Source of the DNA: Candidatus Melainabacteria bacterium
Lineage (GTDB): Bacteria > Cyanobacteriota > Vampirovibrionia > 2-02-FULL-35-15
Reading direction: 5' to 3'
NCBI GenBank assembly: GCA_023250205.1
Contig: JAHFBE010000005.1
Location: forward strand, 16,376-50,249
Length of the DNA stretch: 33,874 nucleotides
A program made the position numbers and the translations under genes. Below are positions 8,289-10,064 of the stretch, one piece after another. The notes under the pieces are model-generated. The model was not told where the DNA came from and ran no database searches. It saw only the letters and a list, made by a program, of their open reading frames with translations. How positions within the stretch are numbered: the stretch's first letter is position 1; the number at the start of each line of letters is the position of its first letter.

Positions 8289-8305
8289 TGTAACCGTGGG
8301 TTACA
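8289..8305 (-). promoter_or_regulatory. Operator-like dyad upstream of module 1
   Basis: TGTAAC-CCACG-GTTACA read in the gene-sense (minus) direction, 66 bp upstream of the ATG. 15/17 identical to the dyad at 10048-10064 upstream of the paralogous module. Confidence 0.6.
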
Positions 8306-8374
8306 TTAGAAGATAAATATTTTCTAAGCTTTGCAAATGTGAATTAAAGCGTGCTTGTGGTTAGGGAGTAATTT

Positions 8375-8465
8375 GTCATTGCGAGCCGAATAAAATGAGG
8401 CGTGGCAATCCCGATCGGGACTGCTGTGGAGACGTTGCATGCAACGTCTCTTCTTTCGCAGTGAC
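8375..8465. repeat. MITE-like palindromic element (family copy 2, inverted relative to copy 1)
   Basis: gtcattgcgagccgaataaaatgaggcgtggcaatcccgatcggga...gagacgttgcatgcaacgtctc...gcagtgac. Reverse complement of 2154-2263 apart from ~19 nt missing internally and a few substitutions. Confidence 0.9.
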
Positions 8466-8549
8466 ATAAAGTCAAAGGATCGAAAACAAACATTGAAACT
8501 TTGACAAAAATTCAAATAGTATAAATTTTATTTTCATATAATTTCCTTT

Positions 8550-9896
8550 CTATGGTGTTACAGGTGCTGGTTTTGGTTGTCCCTGTTGTTGTGTTGGTTG
8601 ATTACTTTGTTCAGGTTCAGGACTTAAATCTTTTAACAAGTTATGCATGTTATCCATGGCTGCAAGAAGAGGTTTCATCATACTTATCGGTCCAGTTATT
8701 TTTCTTAGTAATCCATTCAATGCATGCCCTATAAAAGGGATGTTCATAAATGATGATGTTTCAGAAAGTCCAATTAGCCAGTTGATTGCACCTTTAGGTA
8801 TCCATCTCCCAACCTCAATTCCAAGTTTAGCCACAGAAAAAACAGAATTTTCTGTATCTGTAAGTTTTTTAAGATCCCCATCAGTTATTTCTTCACCTTT
8901 CATTGCTTTTAGTATGCAATTTTTAAAATTTACAGATAATCCATTTTCTAAAAGTTTCGAAGCCTCTTGACCAATATCAATACCACTTGAACTAAGTAGC
9001 ATTTTTATTATTGGACTTGAGTTTACGGTGGTTATTACTCCTTCAATCAAGCCATTAATTGTTTTGTCCGTTGTTACGTGAACTTTTTTAGTTTCGTCAA
9101 ACGTTTGTTTATCTACTTCAGTAGCCGTAGTAAATTTACTTAATGTTGCTTCCAGATTTTTTAAATCTTCATGTGTAAGCTGTTTGTCAGGATCTTTTAA
9201 TATGTTTAAAACAGAGGTTATTTGACTCTGAGTTTTACCATCTTGCCATGCAATCCCGTCGCTTAAATTCTGTAAGTTAGTTTGTAATGAAGTTCTAGCT
9301 TGCATTGTTGCTGGATCAGAAGTTTGCCCTGTTAGTAATGTAACTGCTTGGGGTGTAAGTGAACCAATAGTTGATTGCAATAAAGCTTGATACCCTTTTG
9401 TAATTATTAAATTTGAATCTTGTGCTGGAGAAGAATTTCCATTCTGTGGACTAGGACTTGCTTGTTGAGGATTTAAATCGTTGTGAATAGTCTCTAAATG
9501 TCCAGTTAATTCTTGTAAATCAGTTAGTGCGGAACTATCTAAATCATGAAGATCAATCGTTCCTGTTTGTAGTCCTTCTACAATTGCGCTAAGTGATTGC
9601 CACTGCTCGCTATTTTCACCTAAAATAGGTTTTAATGTATCTACAGCGGTCTCTAGTTCTTTTCCTTTCTGTATTAATTGCTGTGCGCCGAATTGTGCTC
9701 CTGTAGGACCACCGGCAGTTTCTCCAATGTTATGAATTTCTTCAAAGATGGTAGCTAGTGTTTTTACTGCAGCTATTTCGGGAGTTCCTGCTACAGCATT
9801 TGTCAAAAGATCAAGAGCAGCTTTCCCCGTTCCTGTATTTAAAAGAGCTTTTGTGGCCAAACTAAATAAATCTGTTCCTGCTGTAATTGTTGTCAT
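8550..9896 (-). CDS. Uncharacterised 448-aa protein with Pro/Gln-rich linker and C-terminal tail
   Basis: Long ORF with a good ribosome-binding site (aggagatcattaATG on the minus strand). Ala/Thr/Leu-rich helical composition; low-complexity 'NPQQASPSPQNGNSSPAQDS' and tail 'SPEPEQSNQPTQQQGQPKPAPVTP'. No family recognised. Confidence 0.8.
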   Translation of the reverse strand: MTTITAGTDLFSLATKALLNTGTGKAALDLLTNAVAGTPEIAAVKTLATIFEEIHNIGETAGGPTGAQFGAQQLIQKGKELETAVDTLKPILGENSEQWQSLSAIVEGLQTGTIDLHDLDSSALTDLQELTGHLETIHNDLNPQQASPSPQNGNSSPAQDSNLIITKGYQALLQSTIGSLTPQAVTLLTGQTSDPATMQARTSLQTNLQNLSDGIAWQDGKTQSQITSVLNILKDPDKQLTHEDLKNLEATLSKFTTATEVDKQTFDETKKVHVTTDKTINGLIEGVITTVNSSPIIKMLLSSSGIDIGQEASKLLENGLSVNFKNCILKAMKGEEITDGDLKKLTDTENSVFSVAKLGIEVGRWIPKGAINWLIGLSETSSFMNIPFIGHALNGLLRKITGPISMMKPLLAAMDNMHNLLKDLSPEPEQSNQPTQQQGQPKPAPVTP

Positions 9897-10047
9897 TAAT
9901 GATCTCCTAAAATATTTTTATAATTAAAAAAGCCTTTTACAGCTTCTATAGATAAAAAGTAGGATTAAGAAAAAACTTGATAAAGAAGTAGTTAAAGACT
10001 AAGAAATTTTTTAAATTAGGTTAAAGAATAGTTAAAACTTTTTTGGA

Positions 10048-10064
10048 TGTAACTTACGGTTACA
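10048..10064 (+). promoter_or_regulatory. Operator-like dyad upstream of module 2
   Basis: TGTAAC-TTACG-GTTACA, 34 bp upstream of the 10099 ATG, in the divergent intergenic region shared with the 448-aa protein gene. Confidence 0.6.

What the first reader, a model, noticed from the sequence alone, without database searches (positions are those of the whole stretch)
8289..10064. Near-identical 17-bp dyad (TGTAAC-NNACG-GTTACA) upstream of both small-membrane-protein modules
Seen: minus-strand TGTAACCCACGGTTACA at 8305-8289 and plus-strand TGTAACTTACGGTTACA at 10048-10064. They are 15/17 identical when both are read in the direction of the downstream gene, with perfect 6-bp inverted half-sites and a 5-nt spacer. 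Leaders are 66 and 34 bp. By eye I found no other TGTAAC-N5-GTTACA in the window. Inference: one transcription factor co-regulates both modules, and possibly the divergent 448-aa gene at 9896.
Basis: partly seen in the sequence, partly recalled or inferred. Interest (0 to 1): 0.8.

Follow-up and report, generated by a model that had tools for sequence, protein, structure and literature searches.

The report
Operator of a competence-like gene regulon
The two near-identical palindromes are real: they are two of about twenty binding sites in this uncultured Melainabacteria genome that, judged by their fixed spacing from promoters and their neighbour genes, let an unidentified activator switch on DNA-processing (competence-type) genes together with a multicopy family of tiny membrane proteins.

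Summary
Observation confirmed: exact dyads at 8289-8305(-) and 10048-10064(+). Genome-wide there are 16 exact copies in 2.08 Mb against none for the reversed-pattern control. All 11 genomes searched in the same family carry 4-34 copies; other families of the class have 0-3.

The fuller consensus is TGTAACC-NNN-GGTTACA (a half may read TGATACC). All eight paralogues of the 70-aa membrane protein in this genome have it. So do comM (paired sites 50 bp apart), dprA, the ssb operon, a RAYT transposase and an ORF6N gene; recJ/pilC join in relatives.

In 68 of 169 contexts a -10 box (TANNNT, often extended TGn) lies exactly 21 nt downstream, usually with the start codon 6-8 nt later (near-leaderless). 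The dyad centre is then near -42, the class II activator position. Window module 1 has the dyad further upstream of a promoter with its own -35.

A sister family has the same membrane-protein family and comM under an unrelated element (GGAAnnnTGACCCC) at an equally fixed position, with no cross-occurrence.

Best reading: operator of an undescribed activator of a competence/DNA-processing regulon. Regulator identity, competence itself and the membrane proteins' role are inferred. Control of the divergent 448-aa gene is not supported.

The parts
10048..10064 (+). Operator dyad of module 2, TGTAACTTACGGTTACA; ends 21 nt before the -10 (class II-like layout)
10086..10091 (+). -10 box TAGAAT, preceded by TGn (10083-10085); start codon 7 nt downstream, predicted near-leaderless mRNA
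   Evidence: position fixed across 68 promoters
10099..10311 (+). Module 2 gene A: 70-aa protein, predicted two-helix membrane hairpin, member of family A2
10304..10426 (+). Module 2 gene B: 40-aa protein with one hydrophobic stretch, overlapping gene A
   Evidence: no family match
8289..8305 (-). Operator dyad of module 1, TGTAACCCACGGTTACA; 52 nt upstream of the -10 (class I-like layout)
8231..8260 (-). Promoter-like element of module 1: TTGATT (8260-8255), 18-nt spacer, TATATT (8236-8231)
   Evidence: consensus match only
7998..8222 (-). Module 1 gene A: 74-aa paralogue of the module 2 70-aa protein
7864..8001 (-). Module 1 gene B: 45-aa protein with one hydrophobic stretch, overlapping gene A

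Best explanation
Each dyad is the operator of one dimeric transcription activator, not yet identified, in a family of uncultured Melainabacteria. Shown by sequence: TGTAACC-NNN-GGTTACA occurs at about 20 promoters in this genome and 4-34 times per genome across the family, mostly in front of a recurring gene set; in the commonest layout the dyad ends exactly 21 nt before an extended -10 that lacks a -35, and the start codon follows closely, so the mRNA is near-leaderless. Inferred: at such promoters (window module 2) the activator sits at about -42 and replaces the -35 contact (class II); at others (window module 1) it sits further upstream of a promoter with its own -35 (class I); pairs of sites 30 or 50 bp apart (ssb, comM) bind cooperatively. 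Inferred from gene content (comM, dprA, ssb, recJ, pilC): the regulon is a natural-competence or single-strand-DNA-processing response, and the multicopy small membrane proteins are induced as part of it.
For: 16 exact sites versus 0 control in the genome and enrichment in all 11 family genomes only. TANNNT peak at exactly 21 nt: 68 against a median of about 11 per position; start-codon peak at 31-37 nt; extended -10 and no -35. Site pairs spaced 29-32, 48-51 and 61 bp. All 8 copies of the 70-aa family in this genome, found without using the dyad, carry it. Targets confirmed by profiles: DprA, YifB/ComM, SSB, RAYT, RecJ, PilC-like T2SSF, ORF6N. comM keeps the 50-bp site pair in two named relatives. 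In sister family f4 a different element stands at an equally fixed place before the same membrane-protein family and comM.
Against: No expression or binding data. comEC in this genome has no good site, and of the pilus genes only pilC was seen. By number the regulon is dominated by unknown membrane proteins and by transposase/antirepressor-type genes, so competence is not the only reading. About half of the module promoters have the dyad further upstream, and the 45-48 nt group is out of helical phase with the rest. One site lies over the mutL start codon, which fits no activation model.
Confidence: 0.66

Rival explanations
1. The dyad is a repressor operator of a DNA-damage response (LexA-like SOS, or DdrO-like radiation/desiccation response); the genes are switched on when the repressor is cleaved.
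For: ssb, recJ, dprA, a mutL-overlapping site and a DinD-like Bro-N protein are plausible damage-response genes. A 17-bp palindrome also suits XRE-type repressors such as DdrO (17-bp length from own knowledge; DdrO as repressor of genes with a promoter motif: PMC5552922).
Against: A repressor does not need an exact 21-nt distance to the -10, nor a missing -35. No recA, lexA or uvr gene was recognised beside a site (by eye).
Confidence: 0.18
2. The dyad is a GlnR/TnrA-type box of a MerR-family nitrogen regulator.
For: The sites fit the published 17-bp GlnR/TnrA consensus TGTNAN7TNACA letter by letter, and TnrA is an activator (PMC6191146).
Against: No nitrogen-metabolism genes stand out among the targets. 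A small GlnR-like MerR protein is not common to the family: G002, 98% complete with 19 exact dyads, has only one weak MerR hit in a 323-aa frame.
Confidence: 0.05
3. The dyad is a CRP/FNR-family site, as in the CRP-S competence regulon.
For: Class I/II layout and competence-type targets are typical of CRP; exactly one Crp-type HTH protein is encoded in this genome.
Against: CRP-type sites are even-spaced (TGTGA-N6-TCACA, own knowledge), whereas here TGTAA-N7-TTACA is odd-centred. The recognition helix of the single homologue (SPRETVNR) is of the kind that reads TGTGA. The crp-like gene has no exact dyad of its own.
Confidence: 0.06
4. The dyad is a structural or mobile-element sequence (RNA hairpin, recombination or insertion target) that travels with the gene module, not a protein operator.
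For: The gene family is multicopy and transposases are among the genes that carry the site.
Against: The dyad lies upstream of the predicted transcript start. Only the 17 bp and the -10 are well conserved, not the DNA around them. The same site stands before comM and dprA in different genera. No Rfam match in the window.
Confidence: 0.03

Closest known systems
CRP-S / Sxy competence regulon of Haemophilus and relatives
   Same: Genome-wide palindromic box recognised by an activator in front of competence genes such as comM, dprA, ssb and pilus genes (own knowledge; related papers found)
   Different: Different, odd-centred 17-bp box; no evidence that CRP is the regulator; multicopy small membrane proteins and RAYT/ORF6N genes are included; near-leaderless promoters
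GlnR/TnrA boxes (TGTNAN7TNACA) of Bacillus and Paenibacillus
   Same: The letters of the 17-bp consensus are met; TnrA is an activator (PMC6191146)
   Different: Targets are DNA-processing genes, not nitrogen genes; inner CC...GG is conserved here; no small MerR protein common to all genomes
DdrO/RDRM radiation-desiccation regulon of Deinococcus
   Same: A shared palindromic motif in promoters of DNA-repair genes
   Different: DdrO is a repressor; here the fixed spacing points to an activator; different gene set

Membership tests
Natural-competence regulon with an activator box | Shared box upstream of several DNA-uptake/processing genes | tested here: met
   comM, dprA, ssb in this genome; recJ and pilC in relatives
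Natural-competence regulon with an activator box | Box upstream of comEC, the DNA channel | tested here: not met
   comEC is present on C44 but the fetched stretch has only a three-mismatch match; so it is not filed as a proven competence regulon
Natural-competence regulon with an activator box | Transformability and coordinated induction | not testable with these tools
   uncultured organism, no expression data
Class II activator-dependent promoter | Operator at a fixed distance placing its centre near -42, weak or no -35 | tested here: met
   TANNNT at 21 nt in 68 of 169 contexts, no -35, extended -10; start site itself is predicted, not mapped
CRP/FNR sites | Even-centred dyad (TGTGA-N6-TCACA or similar) | tested here: not met
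   dyad is odd-centred, 7-3-7
GlnR/TnrA regulon | Consensus TGTNAN7TNACA | tested here: met
   all exact sites fit by letters
GlnR/TnrA regulon | Small MerR-family regulator present wherever the box is | tested here: not met
   no small MerR protein in G002 despite 19 exact dyads
LexA/SOS regulon | Box at lexA and recA | tested here: inconclusive
   none recognised by eye beside the sites; lexA and recA were not searched for directly

The most novel reading that the evidence does not exclude
Two sister families of Melainabacteria keep the same competence-like regulon core (comM plus a large family of tiny membrane proteins) and the same rigid, near-leaderless promoter layout, but the operators have been replaced wholesale: TGTAACC-N3-GGTTACA in one family, GGAAnnnTGACCCC in the other. 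This would be a whole-regulon rewiring under one diverged or two unrelated unknown regulators, with an unnamed competence-linked membrane-protein family of up to 23 copies per genome.
Probability: 0.45. Interest if true: 0.82.

Novelty: new variant of a known kind. Interest (0 to 1): 0.66.

Why it matters
The paper searches found nothing on competence control in these non-photosynthetic relatives of Cyanobacteria. This gives, from sequence alone, a defined operator, a promoter layout and a target list. It links an unnamed multicopy membrane-protein family to DNA-processing genes, and it offers a natural case of concerted operator replacement across a regulon. It makes the search for the regulator, and for what the small proteins do, directly testable.

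Tried and rejected
Control of the divergent 448-aa gene: no promoter geometry on that side. RNA structure: no Rfam match, and the dyad lies upstream of the predicted start. Strict helical phasing of all upstream sites: 21, 42 and 52 nt fit, 45-48 nt do not. CRP as regulator: operator mismatch. GlnR-type MerR as regulator: no small MerR protein in every genome. Short single-domain GerE/LuxR proteins lie within about 5 kb of ssb in four relatives, but GerE proteins of similar size occur in other families, so this is only a lead. Structure of the membrane protein: two-helix hairpin, mean pLDDT 82, no solved relative. Pfam, NCBIfam, PADLOC and PHROGs give no name for the membrane proteins or the 448-aa protein.

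Full report
What was checked. The two dyads are present as described. Two copies in a 34-kb window prove little, so the whole genome was searched: 16 exact TGTAAC-N5-GTTACA in 2,083,085 bases and none for the same pattern read backwards. In all 11 genomes of the same family the dyad occurs 4-34 times (reversed control 0-1), while the other genomes of the class have 0-3.

The site. From 169 distinct exact contexts in the family the consensus is TGTAACC-NNN-GGTTACA, with A preferred before it and T after it. Members of the gene family without an exact copy mostly have a near copy, often with one half reading TGATACC/GGTATCA. Pairs of sites are spaced 29-32, 48-51 or 61 bp in nearly all cases, which suggests cooperative binding.

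The promoter. Counting TANNNT at every distance from the dyad, in both orientations, gives one dominant peak at exactly 21 nt (68 sites against a median of about 11 per position). Those 68 sites show an extended -10 (TGn), no -35 and a T-rich stretch just after the dyad, and start codons peak at 31-37 nt. With a transcript start 6-7 nt after the -10, the mRNA begins at or near the start codon and the dyad centre is at about -42, the class II position (general knowledge of bacterial activators). Window module 2 is of this type (TAGAAT at 10086-10091). Window module 1 has the dyad 52 nt upstream of TATATT at 8236-8231, with a TTGATT -35, a class I-like layout; about half of the module promoters have the dyad further upstream in this way. 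Those distances cluster at 39-42, 45-48, 50-53 and 62-64 nt; not all are in helical phase.

The genes. In this genome the sites precede all eight copies of the 70-aa membrane-protein family, which were found without using the dyad. They also precede YifB/ComM (two sites), DprA, a small secreted protein followed by SSB (two sites), and a REP-associated tyrosine transposase (two sites). Variant site pairs precede an ORF6N gene on C8 and a secreted protein on C6. Single sites lie after a dUTPase-like gene ahead of a YraN/integrase-like cluster, and over the mutL start codon. In relatives the same set recurs, with RecJ divergent from PilC, RhuM-Fic, Bro-N and further ORF6N and RAYT genes. comM carries the site pair in both named relatives. 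Over the family's genomes, 70 of 73 upstream regions of family members hold a near-dyad against 2 of 2360 reversed stretches. This set is close to complete for G000, G001 and G003-G006 when compared with the dyad-independent list; for the other genomes it is partly dyad-selected.

The sister family. The membrane-protein family was found in only one other family of the class (f4; 1-23 copies per genome), where the dyad is at chance level (0-2 per genome). There the members share a different element, GGAAnnnTGACCCC, usually inside TTTTG(G/C)GGAAAAATGACCCCTTAAAATTTT. Its -10 lies exactly 23 nt downstream in 24 of 45 contexts, and the start codon at 36-37 nt in 34 of 45. It occurs 19-28 times per genome against 0-1 for the control, and stands before comM in three genomes (the third by sequence likeness). 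It is absent from 1.49 Mb (both strands counted) of f1 loci, and the dyad is absent from the f4 loci. So the regulon core and the promoter layout are conserved while the operator is not.

Mechanism. The fixed spacing and missing -35 make an activator that contacts RNA polymerase the most economical reading. The target list makes a competence or single-strand-DNA response the most likely purpose. Both are inference from sequence. Which protein binds is unknown. The lone CRP homologue does not fit the operator. GlnR/TnrA boxes have the same letters, but no small MerR protein is common to all genomes. Short LuxR-type proteins near ssb are a lead. The membrane proteins are predicted as two-helix hairpins, with no solved or named relatives. 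The protein search returned 65 relatives; the two that bear an organism name are Melainabacteria.

Limits. Many gene names in the tables were given by eye; only those named with profile calls are confirmed. comEC lacks a good site. No expression data exist, and transcript starts are predicted, not mapped.

Noticed in passing
L254-L303 (family f4 loci), e.g. L260, L274, L285, L302: In the sister family the same membrane-protein family and comM are preceded by a different element, GGAAnnnTGACCCC, with the -10 at exactly 23 nt; one f4 genome has over ten copies of the module in a tandem array (L260).
   Followed up: partly
L017:4001-4017, L106:6866-6882, L133:3001-3017: The dyad overlaps the mutL start codon in three genomes (ATG or GTG as its centre); a coding coincidence or a different kind of control.
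   Followed up: no
window 8370-8475 and 11850-11975: Two copies of an interspersed repeat (TGTCATTGCGAG...GCAATC...) of the REP kind, in a genome whose RAYT transposase carries the dyad; one lies right behind the module 1 dyad.
   Followed up: no
L334, L335, L336, L337: One or two short (about 100 aa) single-domain LuxR-type proteins lie within about 5 kb of the ssb operon in four relatives; a lead for the regulator.
   Followed up: partly
L102:3394-3909, L103:1951-2955, L129:3087-3923: ORF6N, RhuM-Fic and Bro-N genes under the dyad match PADLOC candidate defence families PDC-S05, PDC-S23 and PDC-S13.
   Followed up: no
window 8550-9896: A 448-aa protein with no match in Pfam, NCBIfam, PADLOC or PHROGs; a somewhat similar-looking 367-aa protein is divergent from a module in L216.
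   Followed up: no
upstream of dyads, e.g. L092, L093, L140: An A/T-rich stretch (GAAAAATTTAATC-like) lies 5-30 nt upstream of many dyads and between the 50-bp-spaced pairs; possibly an UP element or a bend.
   Followed up: partly
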